A stretch of DNA of 54,997 bases from Haloarculaceae archaeon. Its GTDB lineage: Archaea; Halobacteriota; Halobacteria; Halobacteriales; Haloarculaceae. Positions 44,887 through 54,705 of the stretch are shown here, piece by piece. The stretch spans positions 1 to 54,997 of the forward strand of contig SKTU01000068.1 of the NCBI GenBank assembly GCA_007122455.1, read 5' to 3'. Made by a program: the position numbers and the translations under genes. Position 1 is the first letter of the stretch. Each line of letters begins with the position of its first letter. Under the pieces are notes generated by a model. It did no database searches and had not been told where the DNA came from. It saw nothing but the letters and a program-made list of their open reading frames with translations.

Positions 44887-47190
44887 GTGGAGGCGACTGT
44901 CGAGTGGCTCCGGGACCGACCGTACGTCGACGAACAGCCGTGCGCCTACGAGCGCCTCGAGGGACGGAGCGCGTCGTTTTCGGCGATCGATCTCGACGCC
45001 CGACTCGAGCGCGCCCTCGAAGCACGTGGCATCGAGCGGCTCTACGACCACCAGGCCGATGCGATCCGGTCGGTTCGGAGCGGTCGCGACGTCGTTCTGT
45101 CGACCGAAACCGCCAGCGGAAAGAGTCTCGCGTACACCGTTCCCGCGTTCAAGCGGGCGATGGATCGACGCGCGACGACGCTGTATCTCGCACCACAGGT
45201 TGCACTCATAAACGATCAGACGGAGACGCTCTCCGATCTCGCCGCTGACCTGGGATTCGCGAGCGGCGTCACCGTCGAGGCGTACACCGGCCGGCTCTCC
45301 CGAAGCGAAAAGCAGGCGGTACGGGAGCGACAGCCGACGGTGCTTCTCTGTACGCCGGACATGCTCCACTACGGTCTGCTGCCGCACGCACGACGGCTGT
45401 GGTCGTGGTTCTTCGAGCGGCTCGAAACCGTCGTCGTCGACGAGATTCACGAGTACCGGGGGATTTTTGGGAGCCACGTCGCCGGCGTCTTCCGCCGTCT
45501 CGATCGGCTCTGCTCGGAGTTCGGCGCCGATCCGGAGTTCGTTTGCTGTTCGGCGACGATCGGCAACCCGGTCGAACACGCTGGGACGGTGACTGGTCGT
45601 GCGGCCCCCCGGATCGAACTGGTCGAGGAGGACACGAGCGCCAGCGGAGCGACCCACTGGCTCCTCTGGAACCCGCCGGAGTACGGCGACGGTGGATGGG
45701 GAAGCGGCCGCCGCCGCTCCTCGCACACCGAATCCGAGCGGCTGTTCTGCGATCTCCTCTCCCGTGGGCACCAGACGCTCGTGTTCACGAGCGCCCGGCA
45801 GACGGCTGAGCGATACGCGAGCAGCTCCGCCAGCCGGCTTCGCGAGCGCGGTGATCACGAGATCGCGCGGTCGGTCGCGGCGTATCAGGCGTCCCTCCCC
45901 GACGACCGACGACGCGAGATCGAAGCCGGACTCGTTTCGGGGGACGTGCGTGGGGTCTGGAGCACGAACGCGCTCGAACTCGGCGTCGATATCGGTGGTC
46001 TCGACGCGGTGATCCTCGACGGCTATCCCGGAACGCGAATGGAGGCGCTCCAGCAAGCCGGACGGGCGGGACGTGGCCTCGAACCGTCGCTCGTCGTGCT
46101 CGTTGCCGGAGAGGATCAGCTCGATCAGTATCTGATGAACGATCCGGCGGCGTTCTTCGAGGCCGAGCCGGAGCGTGCGGTTACGAACCCCGAAAACGAG
46201 CGGCTGTTACCCGATCACGTTCGCGCCGCGGCCGACGAGGCGTGGCTCCGTCCCGGCGACGACGAGCGGTTCGGCGATTCGTTCCCCGACGTGGTGGCAG
46301 ATCTCACCGACCGCGGCCTGCTCTCGCGGCGCGAGACGAACGACGGGATCCGATGGCTCCACAACGGTTCGAGCCCACAGCACGAGATCAGCCTCCGGAC
46401 CATCGAGCAGCGGTCGATCCAGCTTCGGGGACCGAGCGGGGAGACGTTGGCGTCGCTCCCCTTCGCGGACGCGCTCCGGGACGCCCACGAGGGCGCGATA
46501 TATCACCACCAGGGGCGGCGCTACGAGGTCGAAGCGCTCGACCTCGAGGCGAACGTCGCACAGCTTCAGTCGACGTGGGCGGACTACTTCACGCGCGTAC
46601 TCCACGAGAAGACGATCACAGTCGAGGCCGACCTCGACCGCACGCCGCTGGAGGCGCGCCCCGACGTCGAGGCCCGCTTCGCGGAGGTGACGATGCGAAA
46701 GCGGATCACGGGTTTCCAGCGGTTCGACGGATCGACCGGCGAATCGATCGGGACCGTCGATCTCGATCTTCCAGAGACGACGTTGCGAACGCGGGCGCTG
46801 TACGTTCCGCTCCCGGACGACGCCGTTTCGGCGCTCGGTGACGGGGTTCCGGGCGGGATCCACGCCGCCGAGCACGCGATGATCTCGATGCTCCCGACCC
46901 GAGTGCTCTGTGACCGCCGCGATATCGGCGGCGTGTCGACGCCGCTTCACCCGCATACGGCCACCGCGACGATCTTCGTCTACGACGGCTATCCCGGGGG
47001 TGTAAACCTCGCACGGTCGGGATACGACGAACTCGACGAGTTGCTGGAGACGACTCGAGAGATGGTCTCCCGCTGTCCCTGCGACGGCGGCTGTCCGGCC
47101 TGCGTGCAGTCGCCACACTGCGGGAACGCGAACGATCCGCTCGAAAAAGAGCTGTCCGTGGTTCTTCTGGATCGGTTACTGGATCGGTGA
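44887..47190 (+). CDS. DEAD/DEAH-box helicase with DUF1998, MrfA-like (767 aa)
   Basis: Superfamily 2 DNA helicase. Walker A is TETASGKSLAY, the DEAH-type box is VVVDEIHEYRGIFGSHVAGV, motif III is CCSATIGNP, and the second RecA domain has WSTNALELGVDIGGLDAVIL and QQAGRAGRG. The C-terminal DUF1998 region ends with RCPCDGGCPACVQSPHCGNA, the four-cysteine zinc cluster of the MrfA/YprA family, which repairs mitomycin-type crosslinks with the exonuclease MrfB in Bacillus. No mrfB-like gene is adjacent. The start is a GTG at 44887, 39 bases after the HisG-like stop. Confidence 0.92.
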   Translation: MEATVEWLRDRPYVDEQPCAYERLEGRSASFSAIDLDARLERALEARGIERLYDHQADAIRSVRSGRDVVLSTETASGKSLAYTVPAFKRAMDRRATTLYLAPQVALINDQTETLSDLAADLGFASGVTVEAYTGRLSRSEKQAVRERQPTVLLCTPDMLHYGLLPHARRLWSWFFERLETVVVDEIHEYRGIFGSHVAGVFRRLDRLCSEFGADPEFVCCSATIGNPVEHAGTVTGRAAPRIELVEEDTSASGATHWLLWNPPEYGDGGWGSGRRRSSHTESERLFCDLLSRGHQTLVFTSARQTAERYASSSASRLRERGDHEIARSVAAYQASLPDDRRREIEAGLVSGDVRGVWSTNALELGVDIGGLDAVILDGYPGTRMEALQQAGRAGRGLEPSLVVLVAGEDQLDQYLMNDPAAFFEAEPERAVTNPENERLLPDHVRAAADEAWLRPGDDERFGDSFPDVVADLTDRGLLSRRETNDGIRWLHNGSSPQHEISLRTIEQRSIQLRGPSGETLASLPFADALRDAHEGAIYHHQGRRYEVEALDLEANVAQLQSTWADYFTRVLHEKTITVEADLDRTPLEARPDVEARFAEVTMRKRITGFQRFDGSTGESIGTVDLDLPETTLRTRALYVPLPDDAVSALGDGVPGGIHAAEHAMISMLPTRVLCDRRDIGGVSTPLHPHTATATIFVYDGYPGGVNLARSGYDELDELLETTREMVSRCPCDGGCPACVQSPHCGNANDPLEKELSVVLLDRLLDR

Positions 47191-47232: not shown

Positions 47233-48144
47233 TCACGTCAGCTTTCCGACGGCGTCGCGAGCGTTCGCGGCCGTTTTGACCCCCGGACGACCGAAGAGGG
47301 ATGCGATCAGGGCACCCCCGTATTTGAGTCGGTTTTCGGTTCCGCTGCGAGCCGCTCTCGCGAAGCAGGCAATCGCTTCCGTCGTCCAGCGATCCTCTCT
47401 CAGCCGGATGTGTCCCTCCTTGTAGTAGATCTCCGCGAGGACGGCCCGTCGGATCTCCGGGTAGCGGTCGTAGACGTCGCTGCGGGCGTCGATGACCTGC
47501 TTCATTCCCTCGATCTTGTTCAATCCCGTCCAGGTCCTGCTTTCGCTTCGCCGGTTGAACGTGAGGACCTCGTCGACGTAGTCGAACCGGGTTCTCCGCG
47601 CCAGCTGAATCATCAGATCGCTATCGTTTGCAGCGGTGAACTGGGCGAGCGGGATCGTTTCCGCGAGCAGATCCCGCTCGATGAGCATCGATCCGGTGTA
47701 GCAGGGGAACGTCTCGAAACGTAGCGTCCGCTCGAGCACGTCGCCGGACATTTCGGGAGGTGGGCGGCGCTGCCAGCCGTTGTCCTGCCGCACGCCGCTG
47801 TAGGCGACGCCGACGTCCGGGTCGTCCACCAGTACGTCCACGGTCTTCGAGAGCTTCCCCTCGAGAAATAGATCGTCGTCGTCCAGGAAGTGGACGTACT
47901 CCCCCGTCGATCGCTCGATCCCGTCGGTTCTGGCGACCGAACAGCCGCCGTTTCTGTCCCTGATGACGCTCGTCACCTCGTCGCCGTACCGGTCGAGCAC
48001 GGGTTCGGCGTTCCCCTCCCCCGAGTCGTCGACGACGACGAGTTCGACCGGTTCGTAATCCTGGGCCAGCACGCTCTCGATCGCCTCCTCGAGGAGTTCA
48101 TTCCGGTAGTAGGTCGTGATAACGACCGAGATCAGCGGGTTCAT
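47233..48144 (-). CDS. Glycosyltransferase family 2 (303 aa)
   Basis: Inverting GT-A transferase for surface glycans. Motifs: VVITTYYRNELLEEAIESVL, ELVVVDDSGEGN (nucleotide site), RNGGCSVARTDGIERSTGEY, and the D-x-D region VHFLDDDDLFLEGK. FPCYTGSMLIERDLL and NDSDLMIQLARR give the acceptor-side N/E-D. No membrane segment. A minus-strand TATA (TTAAATAA, about 48166-48173) lies ~27 bases before the ATG, so it is leaderless. It borders the second glycan locus and is divergent from the first copy of the unrecognised three-copy family. Confidence 0.9.
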   Translation of the reverse strand: MNPLISVVITTYYRNELLEEAIESVLAQDYEPVELVVVDDSGEGNAEPVLDRYGDEVTSVIRDRNGGCSVARTDGIERSTGEYVHFLDDDDLFLEGKLSKTVDVLVDDPDVGVAYSGVRQDNGWQRRPPPEMSGDVLERTLRFETFPCYTGSMLIERDLLAETIPLAQFTAANDSDLMIQLARRTRFDYVDEVLTFNRRSESRTWTGLNKIEGMKQVIDARSDVYDRYPEIRRAVLAEIYYKEGHIRLREDRWTTEAIACFARAARSGTENRLKYGGALIASLFGRPGVKTAANARDAVGKLT

Positions 48145-48318
48145 TCGCCCGTTCTACGGCACATCTTTATTTAAGTAACCGTCAGGTAACGCGACGAATT
48201 CGGCCGCAGCCCTGCGATGCTGCCCGCTGGTGTGGCCGCAGCTGTTCGATCGAAGACATCCCTCCCTGTCGTCCTTAGGGCAGCGATTACAATACCCCGC
48301 GGCAGGTGACGTAACTCC
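48145..48318. promoter_or_regulatory. Divergent promoter region of the second glycan locus
   Basis: Minus-strand TTAAATAA (about 48166-48173) serves the GT2 gene. Plus-strand ATTACAAT (48286-48293) is ~28 bases before the GTG at 48319 and supports that non-ATG start. No further gene or structure seen. Confidence 0.55.
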
Positions 48319-49173
48319 GTGACGACGATCGACGTATCACGCGCCACCGCGCTTCGGGAGAACGTTCCGGCGGCGTTACGTCGGGTCGGTTCCTCGATCC
48401 GGGAGGAGACGACACGGATGTACGTACCGCTCCGGTACGGTTGGCTCGGCCGATTTCGGTCCACCGCTTCGCTCCCCAAGGTCATCACGGTCGCGGGAGC
48501 GGACGTCGGATACCGTCTGACGCTCTCGAACGAACAGTTCCCGACGCAGGACGATCAGCTACCGGAATCCGGGCCGTACGACGAGCCGGTCGTCGGCTCG
48601 ATAGGGGGGCCGTGGGACCGATTCAAGCAACCGTGGACGGAGACGGTCTTCTTCAGGAGCTTCGTCGAGCACTACTGCGAGGGGCGTGAGTGGCCGGAGA
48701 CCGACTACTACGACTGGTACGTCGAGTTCAGTACGAAGGACCAGACGCCAGCGGAGCGGTTTCGCGACATCGACCGGCTGTTCGAATCGATGAACGAACG
48801 CGGATACGTCCCACAGGCGGAACTCGTGGCCGGCGAACCGAACGAGATGGAGCGACCGAGGATGACGACGAGAACGATACTCGGCGAGACGTTTCCCGAC
48901 GAACCCGTAGTCGGGATCGGTAGACGCGGAGAGATCATCCGTCTGAACGGCGGCCACCACCGGCTGTCGTTCGCGAGGCTCCTCGGACTCGAGGAGGTTC
49001 CCGTGATCGTCACCATCCGTCACGAGCGGTGGGCGACGGTTCGCGACGCGTTCGAGCGGGCGAACTCGCTGTCGGAGCTTCCCGACAGCTACCGCCAGCA
49101 CGCGGGACACCCCGATCTCCCGCGGGTTCCGGATCGGGCGAACCCGAAGCCGGAGGTGGGGCGATCGGCATGA
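48319..49173 (+). CDS. Glycan-locus protein family, copy 1, ParB/sulfiredoxin-like motif (284 aa)
   Basis: One of three divergent paralogues in this locus (others at 50378 and 52451). No named family recognised. Shared blocks here: G-P-W-D-R (97-101), EGREWPETD (121-129), a helix ending in RGY (161-163), GRRGEI (201-206), NGGHHRLSFARLLGLEEVPV (210-229) and RHERW (234-238). The G-x-H-H-R-L-x-x-A-x-x-L-G motif resembles the nucleotide-binding box of the ParB/sulfiredoxin fold, which includes CTPases and a serine kinase. A phosphotransferase or nucleotide-binding role is inferred. GTG start with TATA at -28; an ATG at 48418 with GGAGGAG nearby is an alternative, but the paralogues keep the N-terminal helix. 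It overlaps the next glycosyltransferase as ATGA. Confidence 0.75.
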   Translation: MTTIDVSRATALRENVPAALRRVGSSIREETTRMYVPLRYGWLGRFRSTASLPKVITVAGADVGYRLTLSNEQFPTQDDQLPESGPYDEPVVGSIGGPWDRFKQPWTETVFFRSFVEHYCEGREWPETDYYDWYVEFSTKDQTPAERFRDIDRLFESMNERGYVPQAELVAGEPNEMERPRMTTRTILGETFPDEPVVGIGRRGEIIRLNGGHHRLSFARLLGLEEVPVIVTIRHERWATVRDAFERANSLSELPDSYRQHAGHPDLPRVPDRANPKPEVGRSA

Positions 49174-50381
49174 ACGTCCTCTACTATCTCCGACGGTTCC
49201 CCAAACTGTCGGAGAGCTTCGTTCTCAACGAGATATACGAGCTCGAGCGGGCCGGTCACGAGGTCGCCGTCTGCGCGCTCTACCGGACTGACGAGGAACT
49301 CACTCACGAGGAGTTCGGGGAGCTCGACGTTCCAATTCGGTACATCGAACCGCCTACGTACCGGAACGCGACGGAGCTGCTCTCCATCAAAGCCCTCCAT
49401 CCGCGAATCCTCCGACGCGCATTTCACCGCCTCTCTCCCGTGGATCACGTCGCGAACCTCTATCGGGCCAGGCGGTGTATCGAGTTCGTCGACGATCTCG
49501 ACGAGGGGATCGACCACGTCCACACCCACTTCGCGATGCGGACGCAGTTCCCGGCCAGATACGTCGCGGCGTACTACGGCGTACCGTTTACGATCACCAC
49601 TCACGCCAACGACCTGTTCAGCGAACCCGTCGGTCGCTACACCGGGAGCTTGCTCCGGAGCGCAGACCGGATCGTCACGATATCGGAGTACAACAGGGAG
49701 TACATCCGGAACCGATTCGCCGAGGAGACGCCGATCGACGTCGTTCGCGCCGGCATCAGACCCGAGAAGTTCTCCCCGATCGTCCCGACCGTGGACAATC
49801 GCGTGCTGACGGTCGGACGGTTCGTCGAAAAGAAGGGGCTGGAGTACGCGCTCGAGGCGATCGATCGGGTCGCCGAGCGGATTCCCGAGGTCGAGTACCA
49901 CGTCGTCGGCTCCGGTCGCCGACGGGACGCACTCGAACGCAAAGTCGAGAAACTCGGCCTCGAATCCAACGTCACGTTCCTGAACAACGTCGACGATCAG
50001 CAGCTGCGCGCTGAGTACGCCGAGGCGCGCTGTTTTCTGCTCCCGTGCGTCGTCGCCGAGTCGGGGGATCGGGACGGGATTCCAGTCGTGCTCATGGAGG
50101 CGATGGCGACGAAGACTCCCGCCGTTTCCACGCGGGTTTCCGGGATCCCGGAACTGATCGATCACGAAGTGAACGGCCTGTTGACCGAGCCGCGGGACCC
50201 CACGGCGACGGCGGAGGCGGTGGTGCGTCTGCTTCGGAACGACGAGGAGTGGTCGGCCTATCGCACTCGCGCCCATGAGCGGGTCGTCTCCGAGTTCAAC
50301 ATCGCGACGGAGGTCGAGCGACTGGAGGCGTCGTTCGAGGCTGCCCGCGCGTCCGACGAGACGACGCGGTATCGAGACTAA
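49170..50381 (+). CDS. Glycosyltransferase family 4 (403 aa)
   Basis: GT-B retaining transferase. The start YYLRRFPKLSESFVLNEIYE is characteristic of the group including WcaL/AmsK-like transferases. HTHFAMRTQFPARYVAAYYG and TITTHANDLFSEPVGRYTG follow, then VLTVGRFVEKKGLEYALEAI in the C-terminal half and the donor-site E-x7-E in ESGDRDGIPVVLMEAMATKT. The ATG at 49170 overlaps the stop of family copy 1 (ATGA at 49170-49173), with GGAGGTGGGG upstream, so the two proteins are made together. Its stop overlaps copy 2 by 4 bases, tail to tail. Sugar unknown. Confidence 0.9.
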   Translation: MNVLYYLRRFPKLSESFVLNEIYELERAGHEVAVCALYRTDEELTHEEFGELDVPIRYIEPPTYRNATELLSIKALHPRILRRAFHRLSPVDHVANLYRARRCIEFVDDLDEGIDHVHTHFAMRTQFPARYVAAYYGVPFTITTHANDLFSEPVGRYTGSLLRSADRIVTISEYNREYIRNRFAEETPIDVVRAGIRPEKFSPIVPTVDNRVLTVGRFVEKKGLEYALEAIDRVAERIPEVEYHVVGSGRRRDALERKVEKLGLESNVTFLNNVDDQQLRAEYAEARCFLLPCVVAESGDRDGIPVVLMEAMATKTPAVSTRVSGIPELIDHEVNGLLTEPRDPTATAEAVVRLLRNDEEWSAYRTRAHERVVSEFNIATEVERLEASFEAARASDETTRYRD

Positions 50382-51289
50382 GCGACGTCGCGATCGCTCC
50401 GAATTCCCTCCGGAAGCACGTCCTGTACGTCCGGATGGTCGAGATGTTCTGTCGCCCTTTCCGACAGTTCGCCCACGGAGTCGGCGTTGCTGATCTCCGT
50501 GCGGAGTTGCTGCCACTGGCTGTGTCGCACGAGAACTCTCACCGGAATGGTCTCCACACCGAGGATCCTCGCGGCGATGAACCGGTGTCGCCCGTCGTCG
50601 AGTATTATCTCTCCGTCGCGGCCGATGTCGACGGCGACCTCGTGGTGTTCCGGCTCGAGGGCTGGTGAGTCGAACGGCGTCCCCTCCCGGTCGTGGATCT
50701 CTCGCTGCGTGAGATAGCCGTGTTCGCGCATGTGGTGGTAGAGTTCGTCCAGGTTCTCCAGTCGCGAGTCGATCCGACGCTCCGAACCGTACCGGTTCAT
50801 GTACAGCTCCTGATCGGACTCCAGCCACTCCTCCGTCAGCCACCGGTAGATCTCGGTATCCTTCCAGGGCGTTCCGTTCTCGAAGTGGTCCACCGCCGAC
50901 GCGTACAGCTGGTAGTTGTCGATGTGTACCAGCGTCGGGTGGTCGAATCCCTCCGCTGCACCCCGTATCATCATCCGATCGGTCGTGCGGTTTCTGTCCC
51001 ACTCTCCGCCTCTCACGTGGGTCGTGAACTTCGAAATACGGTTCCAGAAGTGCGGCGACAGCAGATACTCCACGCTCCGCGGGTCGACGTGGATTCGGCG
51101 ATACCGCTCGGGTGCGGCTCGTCCGTATCTGAGTCGATGAACGGCCCGGTTTGCGGTCGGTTCGACACGAGTTTTCCACCGCTTCCAGACCTCGAACCGA
51201 ACGGATTCCCCGAGGGTGCGGAGAGTCGAAACGACGCTCTCCCGTCGCAGAATCCCGATTCCGGTGGCTGATCGGGATCCCTTCATCAT
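50378..51289 (-). CDS. Glycan-locus protein family, copy 2, ParB/sulfiredoxin-like motif (303 aa)
   Basis: Paralogue of the genes at 48319 and 52451. Shared blocks: an N-terminal basic helical region ending HRLRYG (51-56), RIHVDPRSVEYLLS, G-E-W-D-R (95-99), GTPWKDTE (139-146), a helix ending in HGY (190-192), DIGRDGEIILDDGRHRFIAA (221-240) and VRHSQW (254-259). The R/H-rich DGRHRF motif sits where copy 1 has GGHHRL. No signal peptide or clear membrane helix; the basic N-terminus could bind membrane surfaces. TATA-like CATAACAATAC lies ~29 bases before the ATG on the minus strand. Function unknown; association with glycosyltransferases suggests glycan modification, perhaps phosphorylation. Confidence 0.75.
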   Translation of the reverse strand: MMKGSRSATGIGILRRESVVSTLRTLGESVRFEVWKRWKTRVEPTANRAVHRLRYGRAAPERYRRIHVDPRSVEYLLSPHFWNRISKFTTHVRGGEWDRNRTTDRMMIRGAAEGFDHPTLVHIDNYQLYASAVDHFENGTPWKDTEIYRWLTEEWLESDQELYMNRYGSERRIDSRLENLDELYHHMREHGYLTQREIHDREGTPFDSPALEPEHHEVAVDIGRDGEIILDDGRHRFIAARILGVETIPVRVLVRHSQWQQLRTEISNADSVGELSERATEHLDHPDVQDVLPEGIRSDRDVA

Positions 51290-51377
51290 TCGCTGTTGAA
51301 AGCCCCCGTATCCGTATTGTTATGCACGAGTTGCCGTCGGGGATCCCGGGATACGCCGTTCGGACGCTTCCCTCGAT

Positions 51378-52358
51378 TCATCCTGTCGGAGCGGCGGGTC
51401 GGATCCGTCGCTCGACGGCTGTCAGTGCGTCTATCGTCGGAGCGACGTAGTCGGTGGGGAGAAGCCACAGGAGGAGATAGACGACGGCCGACCGTGGATC
51501 GCGCTGCCGCGTCAACAGCGCGTAGTACGCGGCTCTGGCTGCCGATCGGTTGCCGGCCTCCAGATACCGCTCTCCGGCGCCCCGGTAGTGGGTGGCCCAC
51601 GCCCTGTCGGTTACGCCGTGGGCGTCCAACGTATCGGCGTGTTTCTCGAGGAACGCTTCCCGGTACGTGAACAGCGATTCCAGATCCTCGATCATCGCAC
51701 CGTCGTGGTACATTCGGTCGAGCATCGGCTCCCCGACGTAGTCGACGTCGTAGTTTCGGCTCACTCTGAGATAGAAGTCCCAGTCCGCACAGAACCGGAG
51801 CTGTTCGTCGAATCCGCCGACGTCGTCGAGGACATCATGACGCACCATCACGCTCGACGGCGTGCGGATCGTGTTTCGAACGAGCAACTCCGGATCGACG
51901 GAGTCCCCGTACTCCGGGACGAAGGTGAAGAGTCGACCGCCGTCGCCGTCCACGGCTCTGTAGCCCGCGTGGACCAACCCGAGCCGCTCCGTGCCGGATT
52001 CGAACGCCGACAGCTGCCGTGCGGTCTTCTCGGGCCACCAGCGGTCGTCGTCGTCCAGGAAGGCGAGGTATTCGGCGTCGGTTTCGGCCACCGCCTGGTT
52101 ACGTGCCGCCGGGAGCCCTCGCGGCGTGTCGTTGTGGACGTATTCGAACGGGCGGTCCGGATAGCTCCGTCGTAACTCCTCGACGACGTCGTTCGTCCTG
52201 TCGTCGCTGCTCGCGTCGACGACGACGATCTCGATGGCGTCGTACGTCTGTTGACAGACACTCTCGATGGCCTCTCGGACGTGGTCGGGCCGGTCCATCG
52301 TCGCTATCAGTGCCGCGACGGATGCGTCGGACTCCTGCATATCTGTCGTATCGTCCAA
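51378..52358 (-). CDS. Glycosyltransferase family 2 (326 aa)
   Basis: Inverting GT-A transferase. ALIATMDRPDHVREAIESVC opens the fold; IEIVVVDASSDDRTNDVV is the nucleotide site; RGLPAARNQAVAETDAEYLA precedes the D-x-D region FLDDDDRWWPEK; RTPSSVMVRHDVLDDVGGFD and FCADWDFYLRVSRNY provide the acceptor-side E/D. A C-terminal helical tail (ERYLEAGNRSAARAAYYALL) resembles a TPR-like extension common in haloarchaeal GT2 proteins. ATGs at 52358 or 52340 are both possible. It sits between family copies 2 and 3, all on the minus strand with gaps of about 90 bases. Confidence 0.9.
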   Translation of the reverse strand: MDDTTDMQESDASVAALIATMDRPDHVREAIESVCQQTYDAIEIVVVDASSDDRTNDVVEELRRSYPDRPFEYVHNDTPRGLPAARNQAVAETDAEYLAFLDDDDRWWPEKTARQLSAFESGTERLGLVHAGYRAVDGDGGRLFTFVPEYGDSVDPELLVRNTIRTPSSVMVRHDVLDDVGGFDEQLRFCADWDFYLRVSRNYDVDYVGEPMLDRMYHDGAMIEDLESLFTYREAFLEKHADTLDAHGVTDRAWATHYRGAGERYLEAGNRSAARAAYYALLTRQRDPRSAVVYLLLWLLPTDYVAPTIDALTAVERRIRPAAPTG

Positions 52359-52450
52359 AAATCGTCGAGACAGGTGAAAGTTATGAGAGGCTTAATGCGT
52401 GGACGACGTCTCCGTGAACGAACGTTTGCTCGAACGCTTCGGCGATCGGA

Positions 52451-53230
52451 CTACCATTCGAACTCGGACAGATCGGGATGATCGATGGTGTCGTTCGGAT
52501 CCGTCCGTCCGAGTCGGAGTTCGTTTCGACGTCGCTGCCAGTCGTGGTGGCGAACGAGTACACGCGCTGGAATCCGGTCGACGTCGAGGAGTTTGGCGAT
52601 ACTGAGGCGGTGGCTCCCGCTGTTGTTGTGGATGAGCTGTCCGTCGCGGCCGACGTTCACCGTGACCTCGTCGAGAACTGGAGAGGGCTGGTAGCCGTTC
52701 GTACGGATCGCCTCGAAGAGTTCGTCGTACGCCGACAGCATCTCCAGCATCTTCGACTCGGTCGTACAGAGTTCCCAGCGACTGTTCGGCCACCGCCGAT
52801 TCCACTCCGTACCGTCGGACGTCACCTTCCGTACGAACTCGGTTTCCGCCCACGGGACCCCGTCCAGAAAGCGCTCCCTGAATCCCGAGTGGAGTGCGAG
52901 ATCCTCCCACGAGTCCACCGAGCGGTCCCAGTTTCCGCAGACAACTCTCCCCGTGTTCTCGTATTTGTCGAACCGCCTCTTTTCGTCTGTCGCGATCCGT
53001 GGATGATCGTACGGGCGCTGGATCGCCGTCACGTCGTCCGGGTCCACGTATATGCGTTCGAACGGATCCGCGTCGCTGTACCGTAGCGGAAAGAGGGTAT
53101 GCAGGTGTGCGCGGTGGCGGAGCAACTGGTTGCGCGCACGCTCTCGCACGCCGACTCGGGAGCTGACGGCTCCGTATATCCGGGCAAGCGTACTCCCGAC
53201 GTTCGGAATTCGCTGATTCGTCGAGTTCAC
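52451..53230 (-). CDS. Glycan-locus protein family, copy 3, ParB/sulfiredoxin-like motif (259 aa)
   Basis: Third and shortest paralogue. Blocks: basic N-terminal helices ending FPLRYS (47-52), FERIYVDPDDVTAIQ, G-N-W-D-R (99-103), DGVPWAETE (123-131), a helix ending in NGY (178-180), VNVGRDGQLIHNNSGSHRLS (191-210), AKLLDVDRIPARVLVRHHDW (212-231). It ends soon after the motif domain (DHPDLSEFEW), so that domain is close to the C-terminus in all copies. Copies 2 and 3 share RVLVRH exactly, closer to each other than to copy 1. No membrane segment is clear. Function unknown; inferred to serve the neighbouring transferase. Confidence 0.75.
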   Translation of the reverse strand: MNSTNQRIPNVGSTLARIYGAVSSRVGVRERARNQLLRHRAHLHTLFPLRYSDADPFERIYVDPDDVTAIQRPYDHPRIATDEKRRFDKYENTGRVVCGNWDRSVDSWEDLALHSGFRERFLDGVPWAETEFVRKVTSDGTEWNRRWPNSRWELCTTESKMLEMLSAYDELFEAIRTNGYQPSPVLDEVTVNVGRDGQLIHNNSGSHRLSIAKLLDVDRIPARVLVRHHDWQRRRNELRLGRTDPNDTIDHPDLSEFEW

Positions 53231-54162: not shown

Positions 54163-54705
54163 TCACGAACGGTCGGTGGAACCCACCGGTCGTTCGTTCT
54201 CGCTCGTCTGCTCGGTCGGCCAATCCCCGCCCACGTCGGGGACGTAACTGCCGAGAAACACGACGTTCGCTCGACCGAAACTGACTCTCGTGACGTCACC
54301 CTGCTGTTCCATGCGAGTCAGTACGCGACTCGTCTTCGATTTCGACCAGCTGGTCATATCGGGTATCTGCGACTGTTTCACGCACCCGTCGTTGGCAACC
54401 AACAACCGGAGAACCCACTCCTGGTTGGTCTGGACCGACGCCCGCCCTGTGGGGAGTGCTGTCGGATCCCACTCCCCACTGGATACCAACCTTCCGGACG
54501 GTGTGAACAGTTCGTCCATCCTCTCTACCCTGTCACCTCTTCGACTGTAAAGCAACAGGGCGAACACGCTGACGAGAACGGTACACGCTCCGAGGAACGT
54601 TCCGACGCTGAACGACGGAACGTCGATACCGAACAGCAACACCGGTGCCACGGCTACGGCGGGTATGCGATCATCCGGATTGCTCCGACCCGACGAAAGG
54701 ATCAC
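54163..54705 (-). CDS. Membrane-anchored winged-helix protein (180 aa)
   Basis: The N-terminal third is hydrophobic (AVAVAPVLLFGIDV, then FLGACTVLVSVFALLLYSRR), giving one or two membrane spans. After a linker comes a MarR/IclR-like winged helix (about residues 93-152; NQEWVLRLLVANDGCVKQSQ, DMTSWSKSKTSRVLTRMEQQ, GDVTRVSFGRANVVFL) in which SKSKTSRVLTRM is the recognition helix. This is a common haloarchaeal layout for a membrane-tethered regulator; ligand and targets are unknown. The start is a GTG at 54703-54705, with TATA-like CTATTATG ~33 bases upstream. Confidence 0.75.
   Translation of the reverse strand: MILSSGRSNPDDRIPAVAVAPVLLFGIDVPSFSVGTFLGACTVLVSVFALLLYSRRGDRVERMDELFTPSGRLVSSGEWDPTALPTGRASVQTNQEWVLRLLVANDGCVKQSQIPDMTSWSKSKTSRVLTRMEQQGDVTRVSFGRANVVFLGSYVPDVGGDWPTEQTSENERPVGSTDRS

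What the first reader, a model, noticed from the sequence alone, without database searches (positions are those of the whole stretch)
47233..53230. Three paralogues of an unrecognised protein family interleaved with glycosyltransferases
The proteins at 48319 (+), 50378 (-) and 52451 (-) share ordered blocks: an N-terminal basic helical region ending in L-R-Y, G-x-W-D-R, G-x-P/E-W-x-x-T-E/D, a helix ending in G-Y, then G-R-x-G-x-I/L and G-x-H-R-L/F-x-x-A-x-x-L-x-x-x-x-x-P-V/A. They are divergent, so not a recent duplication. Each sits beside a GT2 or GT4 gene and each seems to have its own promoter. A repeated protein-plus-transferase pairing suggests an undescribed step in haloarchaeal surface-glycan assembly.
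Basis: partly seen in the sequence, partly recalled or inferred. Interest (0 to 1): 0.78.

Follow-up and report, generated by a model that had tools for sequence, protein, structure and literature searches.

The report
ParB-fold family in surface-glycan clusters
Three unnamed genes in a salt-loving archaeon belong to a widespread, undescribed protein family related to nucleotide-binding ParB and serine-kinase proteins; the family tends to sit among sugar-coat genes and may add phosphate to surface sugars, which is untested.

Summary
Three divergent paralogues (48319-49173 +, 50378-51289 -, 52451-53230 -) interleave with two GT2 genes and one GT4 gene; no Pfam or NCBIfam model matches them above its cut-off. 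The family occurs in 150 of 391 Halobacteria genomes searched, in scattered bacteria and in a Lokiarchaeon. It is not randomly placed: 52 of 108 distinct loci have a GT2/GT4 within 3 kb, against 1 of 40 control stretches; 39 of 108 have none within 8 kb. It is not without relatives: the C-terminal core is a divergent ParB/sulfiredoxin-type NTP-binding fold, nearest to the SerK/SbnI serine kinases (Foldseek, profile-profile 92.5% against ParB_N, weak repeated SbnI hits). A stretch with GxWD and WxxT is the family's own. In one bacterial/Lokiarchaeal clade it is fused to a SAM methyltransferase whose closest solved relative by profile is WbdD, the O-antigen kinase/phosphate-methyltransferase, by a modest margin. 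Best explanation: an NTP-dependent glycan-modifying enzyme, most likely a kinase of lipid-linked surface glycans. Fold and context are supported; the kinase chemistry is inferred, and the SerK-type Asp is not conserved.

The parts
48319..49173 (+). family copy 1 (284 aa); ParB/SerK-like core in the C-terminal third, about 48901-49044
   Evidence: ParB-labelled PHROGs hits, most within residues 196-245, best 0.0025; tree group of 10 rows, 97
50378..51289 (-). family copy 2 (303 aa), the copy whose structure was predicted
   Evidence: AlphaFold2 pLDDT 85.5; Foldseek rows 1-43 are ParB, KorB, Noc, PadC, Srx or SbnI structures, apart from Atu1540 (2hwj), whose fold I did not check
52451..53230 (-). 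family copy 3 (259 aa)
   Evidence: 55% identical to a copy in genome G047
51116..51262 (-). copy 2: long N-terminal basic helix (residues 10-58), possible membrane or partner contact (inferred)
   Evidence: DSSP of the model
50993..51010 (-). copy 2: G-G-x-W-D-R motif (residues 94-99); W97 in 138 of 138 aligned members, D98 in 99%
50501..50641 (-). copy 2: ParB/SerK-like core (residues 217-263): E..V..GR.G....(D/N)GxHR...A..L...PV.V..RH..W...R
50582..50593 (-). copy 2: GxxR nucleotide-phosphate motif (residues 233-236, GRHR)
   Evidence: motif defined in PMC12704722
50429..50437 (-). copy 2: H-P-D motif (residues 285-287), where the methyltransferase begins in fused relatives
47233..48144 (-). 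GT2 glycosyltransferase, divergent from copy 1
   Evidence: PF00535 3.9e-27
49170..50381 (+). GT4 glycosyltransferase; its ATG overlaps the stop of copy 1; convergent with copy 2
   Evidence: PF13692 8.5e-38; sequence
51378..52358 (-). GT2 glycosyltransferase between copies 3 and 2
   Evidence: PF00535 1.7e-24

Best explanation
The three proteins belong to a so far unnamed family of NTP-binding enzymes with a divergent ParB/sulfiredoxin fold, nearest to the SerK/SbnI branch. A stretch of about 100 residues (GxWD ... WxxT) lies between the first strand and the core helix. They act in assembly of surface glycans at the cytoplasmic face of the membrane. The most likely reaction is transfer of a phosphate from a nucleotide to a hydroxyl of a lipid-linked glycan. 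The invariant GxxR loop would bind the nucleotide phosphates; the conserved D98, T145, R224, H256 and H285-D287 would bind or activate the sugar. In the bacterial/Lokiarchaeal clade a C-terminal SAM methyltransferase would then methylate that phosphate, as WbdD does. In haloarchaea the domain normally stands alone, often as several divergent paralogues per cluster, each perhaps acting on its own sugar. Shown: family, fold class, conservation, neighbourhood, fusion. Inferred: nucleotide binding by these members, phosphotransfer, glycan substrate, membrane site.
For: Fold: Foldseek of the copy 2 model gives ParB, KorB, Noc, sulfiredoxin and SbnI structures; the highest probabilities are SbnI 6nr6 with ADP (0.96), SbnI 5ujd (0.93) and ParB 7bm8 (0.91), though no match has E <= 0.001. 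Profile-profile 92.5% with nine haloarchaeal ParB_N proteins, against 0.1% for a control pair. SbnI chains are the best PDB sequence hits of the 60-row profile, E 0.12. SbnI is an NCBIfam hit of 2 of 11 members scanned, E 0.0098 and 0.0084. The three-protein profile also gives weak hits (1.7e-5 to 9.5e-4 per genome); the four of these I examined are CBS-SerK-like proteins with a DGHHR motif. Nucleotide motif GxxR: G 99%, R 100% of 138. Glycan role: GT2/GT4 within 3 kb in 52 of 108 loci against 1 of 40 controls; flippase 27 of 108 against 2 of 40; neighbours include sugar epimerases, AglB core, Gfo/Idh, DegT (these were not compared with controls). Phosphate: the methyltransferase fused in 9 relatives matches WbdD best of 177,635 PDB sequences by profile (top four, 1.5e-7 to 1.8e-7; next 4e-6), and WbdD is first by structure (1.0e-8). 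WbdD's phosphate-site pair H132-H133 (PMC3482155, passages) aligns with HH in 9 of 9. A bacterial ParB-fold/SAM-methyltransferase fusion, not known to be one of ours, binds ATP (PMC12704722).
Against: The residue that aligns with SbnI's DGxHR Asp (thought catalytic or metal-binding in SerK and SbnI; recalled) is D in only 55 of 138, so SerK's chemistry cannot simply be carried over. No SerK chain is among the 50 Foldseek rows shown. With the 39-row profile the best PDB hit is a designed helical protein (0.083) and SbnI only 0.6. Two relatives, L136 and L141, lack the GxWD motif and fell out of the 138-row count by its filter. HH is not unique to phosphate methyltransferases: NodS and RebM have His or Tyr pairs there and YcgJ also shows HH. 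WbdD R203, the specific residue, could not be aligned. CmoB scores almost as well as WbdD in Foldseek (1.7e-8 against 1.0e-8), and with a single sequence YcgJ and ToxA rank above WbdD. Haloarchaeal members lack a methyltransferase of this type: one separate gene beside a family gene was found, and one weak hit in a control stretch. 39 of 108 loci have no GT2/GT4 within 8 kb, and 2 of 5 annotated plasmid loci are not in glycan clusters. 17 of 28 ParB-fold proteins tested in PMC12704722 bound no NTP.
Confidence: 0.45

Rival explanations
1. A nucleotide-sensing regulatory or scaffold subunit: the ParB-like domain binds an NTP without catalysis and switches or recruits the neighbouring glycosyltransferase, flippase or fused methyltransferase.
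For: ParB and Noc use the fold as a switch, PadC as a scaffold (PMC12704722 discussion). Several divergent copies occur per cluster: 27 of 100 loci carry two or more, and copy 1's group always has another copy within 3 kb (10 of 10 against 50 of 128).
Against: About a dozen polar or aromatic residues are nearly invariant across bacteria and archaea, both outside the ParB core (W97, D98, W142, T145, H285, D287) and inside it (R224, R236, R255, H256, W259, R263), more than a binding-only module seems to need. No constant partner was seen: GT2, GT4 or methyltransferase vary.
Confidence: 0.25
2. A glycan-modifying enzyme of another chemistry on the same fold (for example nucleotide-dependent transfer of another group, or NTP-driven activation of a carboxylated sugar).
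For: The fold supports diverse chemistry: serine phosphorylation in SerK/SbnI, peroxiredoxin repair in sulfiredoxin (PMC12704722). The SerK-type Asp is not conserved, which leaves room for a new mechanism. Haloarchaeal glycans are rich in uronic acids (recalled).
Against: No specific positive evidence. The best link to a chemistry is the WbdD-like methyltransferase.
Confidence: 0.18
3. DNA-binding regulators of the glycan cluster, as canonical ParB relatives.
For: ParB-labelled PHROGs hits for copies 1 and 2, best 0.0025 and 0.0079; none for copy 3. In one of five annotated plasmid loci an 'AAA family ATPase' lies next to the family gene; whether it is ParA-like was not checked.
Against: No HTH match in the family proteins scanned, fusion to a SAM methyltransferase, enzyme-like conserved residues in the family's own stretch, PF02195 finds nothing in the window's genome.
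Confidence: 0.04
4. The glycan link is an indirect island effect: these are genes of variable genomic islands that happen to carry glycan clusters.
For: Copies are multiple and patchy (150 of 391 genomes), 16 plasmid records carry one, and 39 of 108 loci lack GTs within 8 kb.
Against: The association is also seen outside haloarchaea: 7 of 11 bacterial or Lokiarchaeal loci with a fused or long form have a GT2/GT4 within 9 kb, and the domain is fused to a methyltransferase; start/stop overlap with a GT4 gene in the window.
Confidence: 0.08

Closest known systems
SerK / SbnI free-serine kinases (ParB-fold)
   Same: SbnI is the best PDB hit of the 60-row profile and has the highest Foldseek probability for the core; GxHR loop; four CBS-SerK-like haloarchaeal proteins found by the three-protein profile
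   Different: Family-specific stretch with GxWD/WxxT, long N-terminal helix, C-terminal HPD; the DGxHR Asp only in 55 of 138; glycan neighbourhood instead of amino-acid metabolism
Canonical ParB / Noc / KorB
   Same: Fold of the C-terminal core and GxxR motif
   Different: No HTH domain detected, not detected by PF02195
WbdD (E. coli O9a) and K. pneumoniae O7 ORF6 kinase-methyltransferase chain terminators
   Same: Combination of an NTP-binding domain and a SAM methyltransferase in a glycan cluster; methyltransferase of the fused clade closest to WbdD among solved proteins by profile
   Different: WbdD's kinase is eukaryotic-type and O7's is AmiN-like (PMC3482155, PMC11231755, passages); here the NTP domain is ParB-fold and the methyltransferase is C-terminal instead of N-terminal. 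A coiled-coil ruler was not looked for. Haloarchaeal members lack the methyltransferase.
ParB-CTPase-fold fusions surveyed in PMC12704722
   Same: Bacterial SAM-methyltransferase fusions that bind ATP are reported there; Methyltransf_23 fusions are listed, as commoner in phages
   Different: That survey started from PF02195, which does not detect this family; the words glycosyltransferase, polysaccharide and glycan do not occur in its main text. Our fused protein has no relative in the phage collection. Whether the tested fusion belongs to this family is unknown; its dataset was not readable here.

Membership tests
ParB/sulfiredoxin (ParB-CTPase) fold superfamily | core fold by structure | tested here: met
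   Foldseek rows 1-43 are ParB, KorB, Noc, PadC, Srx or SbnI apart from Atu1540; probabilities up to 0.96, but E-values 0.05 or more and low TM normalised to the query because the core is about a quarter of the protein
ParB/sulfiredoxin (ParB-CTPase) fold superfamily | GxxR phosphate-binding motif (Box II) | tested here: met
   G233 99%, R236 100% of 138 members
ParB/sulfiredoxin (ParB-CTPase) fold superfamily | detected by PF02195 (ParB_N) | tested here: not met
   no PF02195 hit at E <= 10 for the window proteins or E <= 1 for ten long or fused ones; none in G000. Profile-profile comparison does link them
ParB/sulfiredoxin (ParB-CTPase) fold superfamily | binds an NTP | not testable with these tools
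   needs a binding assay
canonical ParB | HTH domain | tested here: not met
   no HTH match in the members scanned
canonical ParB | ParA partner gene | tested here: inconclusive
   no dedicated ParA search; in 5 annotated plasmid loci none is named ParA, one has an adjacent 'AAA family ATPase'
SerK/SbnI serine kinases | DGxHR with the Asp | tested here: not met
   D in 55 of 138, otherwise N, A, S, Y and others; role of the Asp recalled
SerK/SbnI serine kinases | phosphorylates free serine | not testable with these tools
   no assay
WbdD-type kinase-methyltransferase terminators | methyltransferase with His-His and Arg phosphate site | tested here: inconclusive
   HH 9 of 9; an invariant Arg lies near the C-terminus but could not be aligned with R203; HH is shared with other methyltransferases
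WbdD-type kinase-methyltransferase terminators | glycan kinase activity | not testable with these tools
   no assay
WbdD-type kinase-methyltransferase terminators | eukaryotic-type kinase fold | tested here: not met
   the fused NTP domain is the ParB-fold family

The most novel reading that the evidence does not exclude
A new class of glycan kinase built on the ParB/SerK fold, spread through haloarchaea and scattered bacteria. It phosphorylates lipid-linked surface glycans and, when fused to a WbdD-like methyltransferase, caps them with methyl phosphate. Haloarchaeal clusters would use sets of divergent paralogues, some obligately paired, to place different phosphates, so phosphorylated glycans would be a common and overlooked feature of haloarchaeal surfaces.
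Probability: 0.35. Interest if true: 0.82.

Novelty: new variant of a known kind. Interest (0 to 1): 0.62.

Why it matters
It gives a fold and a testable chemistry to a large group of 'hypothetical proteins' in haloarchaeal glycan clusters (found in 150 of 391 genomes of the class). It would extend the ParB fold into glycan biosynthesis, where my paper searches found no mention of it, and would add another kinase fold to the few known kinase-methyltransferase glycan terminators. Phosphate on haloarchaeal surface glycans could be checked directly by mass spectrometry.

Tried and rejected
Pfam, NCBIfam and PHROGs annotation of the window proteins gave only weak ParB/SbnI hints. PDB hits to pentatricopeptide repeat proteins are a repeat-count artefact (each repeat scores about 3 to 4 bits against one helix) and were rejected. 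Viral contigs gave no confirmed relative with A3 and the phage collection none with the fused protein (the window proteins themselves were not run there), so a phage origin was not followed. I looked for a WbdD-like methyltransferase beside standalone members: one separate gene was found (L182, 85 bases upstream, 47 bits) and one weak hit in a control stretch (2.3e-4), so 'kinase plus methyltransferase in trans' is not the general haloarchaeal arrangement. The R203 test with the C-terminal half of the methyltransferase failed, WbdD not being recovered. A phmmer search with one methyltransferase alone ranked YcgJ and ToxA above WbdD, so the WbdD link depends on the profile. The comparison of the family profile with the methyltransferase profile (35%) rests on 14 columns of the HPD motif that I had left in both and means nothing more. 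A careful tree did not finish; only the quick tree with SH-aLRT support is used. Long N-terminal extensions of some haloarchaeal frames (up to 868 aa) were taken as open frame, not as fusions, and not tested further. No promoter test was made.

Papers: PMC12704722 outline, passages and sections 6, 8 and 10; PMC5120207, PMC11231755 and PMC3482155 passages only; all others search listings with the starts of abstracts. The claim that this family is not described in print rests in the open-access library only. The role of the SerK/SbnI Asp, ParB topology and the uronic-acid content of haloarchaeal glycans are recalled.
Full report
What is in the window. The three proteins are real ORFs at the given places. 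They share ordered blocks at 31-36% identity to the first and alternate with two GT2 genes and one GT4 gene. Copy 1 overlaps the GT4 start by ATGA. Copies 3 and 2 flank a GT2 on one strand. The window's genome has further copies: four in a 12,959-base contig (C29) and one in C144.

Distribution. With a 39-row family alignment (A2), 150 of 391 genomes of the class match at E <= 1e-10; at most seven candidates were scored per genome, so copy numbers are lower bounds. A scan of genome contigs with a four-row alignment gave 43 loci out of 76 pattern matches: mostly haloarchaea, and also two nanohaloarchaea, a Lokiarchaeon, and bacterial records titled Desulfobacterales, Desulfurellaceae, WOR-3, Nealsonbacteria, Catenovulum, Nevskiales, Thioalkalivibrio, Azospirillum, Vitreoscilla, Brocadiaceae, Gemmataceae, Puniceicoccaceae, Fuchsiella and Halonatronum (Fuchsiella and Halonatronum match the family model at only 72-90 bits). 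Viral contigs (A3) and phages (fused protein) gave none. Of 16 haloarchaeal plasmid records with a match, 14 annotate it as 'hypothetical protein' and 2 have no annotation there.

Neighbourhood. I took 112 stretches with a family gene: the window, 28 from relatives' genomes, 43 from genome contigs and 40 high-scoring ones from the class search. Four duplicated another, leaving 108; one focal gene per stretch was counted. Five further fetched stretches (L067-L071, four CBS-SerK-like proteins and one fragment) were left out before the count. As control I drew 40 random stretches, two from each of 20 contigs of genomes that carry the family. GT2 and GT4 genes were called with HMMs iterated from the window's own GTs. 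Within 3 kb, 52 of 108 family loci and 1 of 40 controls have a GT; within 8 kb, 69 of 108 and 3 of 40 (Fisher p 2e-8 and 2e-10). Haloarchaeal loci alone: 41 of 89 and 57 of 89. Flippases within 3 kb: 27 of 108 against 2 of 40. Limits: several loci come from one genome (G000, G044, G047) so they are not independent; the class-search loci were picked by score; some contigs are short; most controls lie on main chromosomes; 39 of 108 loci have no detected GT within 8 kb. Other recurring neighbours, judged by one scanned representative per cluster and not compared with controls, are NDP-sugar epimerases, Gfo/Idh oxidoreductases, DUF1616, AglB core, DegT aminotransferase and type I phosphodiesterase. 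Of five annotated plasmid loci viewed, two Halobaculum ones show flippase, glycosyltransferase, epimerase, acetyltransferase and alkaline-phosphatase-family genes, a Halobellus one shows glycosyltransferase and sugar-nucleotide genes, while the Natrononativus and Natrarchaeobaculum ones do not look like glycan clusters.

What fold it is. The family escapes Pfam, including PF02195, and NCBIfam at their cut-offs. PHROGs gave ParB-labelled hits from 0.0025 for copy 1 and 0.0079 for copy 2, none for copy 3. AlphaFold2 with 60 rows gave a good model of copy 2 (pLDDT 85.5, pTM 0.81). In Foldseek the first 43 rows are ParB, KorB, Noc, PadC, sulfiredoxin or SbnI structures, apart from Atu1540 (2hwj), whose fold I did not check; the highest probabilities are SbnI with ADP (0.96, rmsd 2.2 over 75 columns), SbnI (0.93) and ParB (0.91). 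No E-value was below 0.001; the matching core is about a quarter of the protein. No SerK chain is among the 50 rows shown. Profile-profile comparison with nine of the ten haloarchaeal ParB_N loci (six of the nine over the PF02195 cut-off; the tenth is a near copy) gave 92.5% with the 60-row alignment and 91.6% with the 39-row one, on 27 and 39 columns; a control pair gave 0.1%. PDB sequence hits are weak throughout: Spo0J 0.87 with the three-row profile, SbnI 0.6 behind a designed protein at 0.083 with the 39-row profile, three SbnI sequences first at 0.12 to 0.21 with the 60-row profile. SbnI is an NCBIfam hit of 2 of 11 members scanned. The three-row profile also gave some 20 weak hits in other frames at 1.7e-5 to 9.5e-4 per genome; the four I scanned are CBS-SerK-like proteins with a DGHHR motif. 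Their later 70-78 bit scores are inflated because such proteins entered the iterated model.

Conservation. The count uses 138 distinct members with at least 100 bits that cover the model from position 30 or earlier to 185 or later; shorter or weaker frames were dropped, among them L136 and L141, which lack GxWD. Over the 138, W97, G226, R236 and H256 are in 100%, D98, R224, G191 and G233 in 99%, W142 98%, R255 94%, T145 93%, and H-P-D at 285-287 in 97-100% of the 115 that reach it. G233-x-x-R236 is the phosphate motif whose Arg is needed for NTP binding in other ParB-fold proteins (PMC12704722 section 8). The position of the SbnI DGxHR Asp is D in only 55 of 138. GxWD, WxxT and HPD are family features outside the common ParB core. 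This pattern speaks for an enzyme, but not for simple SerK chemistry.

The fusion. In nine relatives the family domain runs from its HPD motif into a SAM methyltransferase of about 180 residues (one of them, L142, is cut at its N-terminal side and another, L136, lacks GxWD). By Pfam, 8 of 10 scanned long frames match a methyltransferase family at E < 0.001 and 4 of these pass a curated cut-off; L109 and L141 do not. With the profile of the nine, L109 also matches and L141 does not. In the quick tree eight of these fused members form one group together with L107, whose frame stops before a methyltransferase (9 rows, support 98); L136, L141 and L142 were not in the tree. A model of the Desulfobacterales protein is confident (pLDDT 92). 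Foldseek's first hit is WbdD (1.0e-8), closely followed by CmoB (1.7e-8). A profile of the methyltransferase alone has WbdD as its first four distinct PDB sequences (1.5e-7 to 1.8e-7, next 4e-6). WbdD phosphorylates the terminal mannose of an O antigen and methylates that phosphate; H132, H133 and R203 are needed for the second step (PMC3482155, passages). The HH pair aligns and is invariant in 9 of 9, but such pairs occur in other methyltransferases, and R203 could not be aligned. The kinase half of such terminators is known to differ in fold: eukaryotic-type in WbdD, AmiN-like in K. pneumoniae O7 (PMC11231755, passages). A ParB-fold kinase would be another. Of 11 bacterial or Lokiarchaeal loci with a fused or long form, 7 have a GT2/GT4 within 9 kb; L105 and L114 also have flippase, FkbM methyltransferase, Maf and GT8 genes between them.

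Paralogue sets. 27 of 100 loci carry two or more of the 138 members. The group that holds copy 1 always has another family gene within 3 kb (10 of 10, four of them close relatives) against 50 of 128 others (Fisher p 1.5e-4). In a Brocadiaceae contig a relative of copy 3 (support 88) and a member of copy 1's group lie end to end, as distant counterparts of the window's set. This hints that unlike members work together.

Judgement. The family and its ParB-like fold are well supported, the glycan association well supported as a tendency. Phosphotransfer to a glycan is the best single guess at the chemistry, at about 0.35 to 0.45. It rests mainly on the SerK/SbnI affinity of the core and the WbdD affinity of the fused methyltransferase, both of modest strength. 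No binding or activity was tested.

Noticed in passing
L067:9323-10177, L069:9804-10640, L070:9756-10604, L071:9752-10606: CBS-CBS proteins with a C-terminal SerK-like domain (motif DGHHR, then HHP), about 280 aa, in four of the haloarchaeal genomes; some 16 further weak hits may be the same but were not scanned.
   Followed up: partly
L182:8423-9187: Separate methyltransferase gene related to the fused one, 85 bases upstream of a standalone family gene in a haloarchaeon: an unfused counterpart.
   Followed up: partly
L066:797-2629 (22 frames in all): Hydrophobic protein without any Pfam match at 1e-4, within 8 kb of the family gene in 21 of 108 loci and in 0 of 40 controls: a second unnamed glycan-cluster family; no membrane-span prediction was run.
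   Followed up: partly
L225:5675-7312, L226:4624-6264: Alkaline-phosphatase-family genes near the family gene in two Halobaculum plasmids, and a type I phosphodiesterase cluster in 6 of 108 loci; suggestive of phosphate chemistry but not tested against controls.
   Followed up: no
window 44887-47190: MrfA-like DEAD-box helicase with MZB domain (PF09369), next to the cluster.
   Followed up: no
window 54163-54705: DUF7343 / MarR-like protein beyond the cluster.
   Followed up: no
G000:C29 (L039:4863-8244): Four further family copies side by side in the window's genome, including a short member of copy 1's group.
   Followed up: partly
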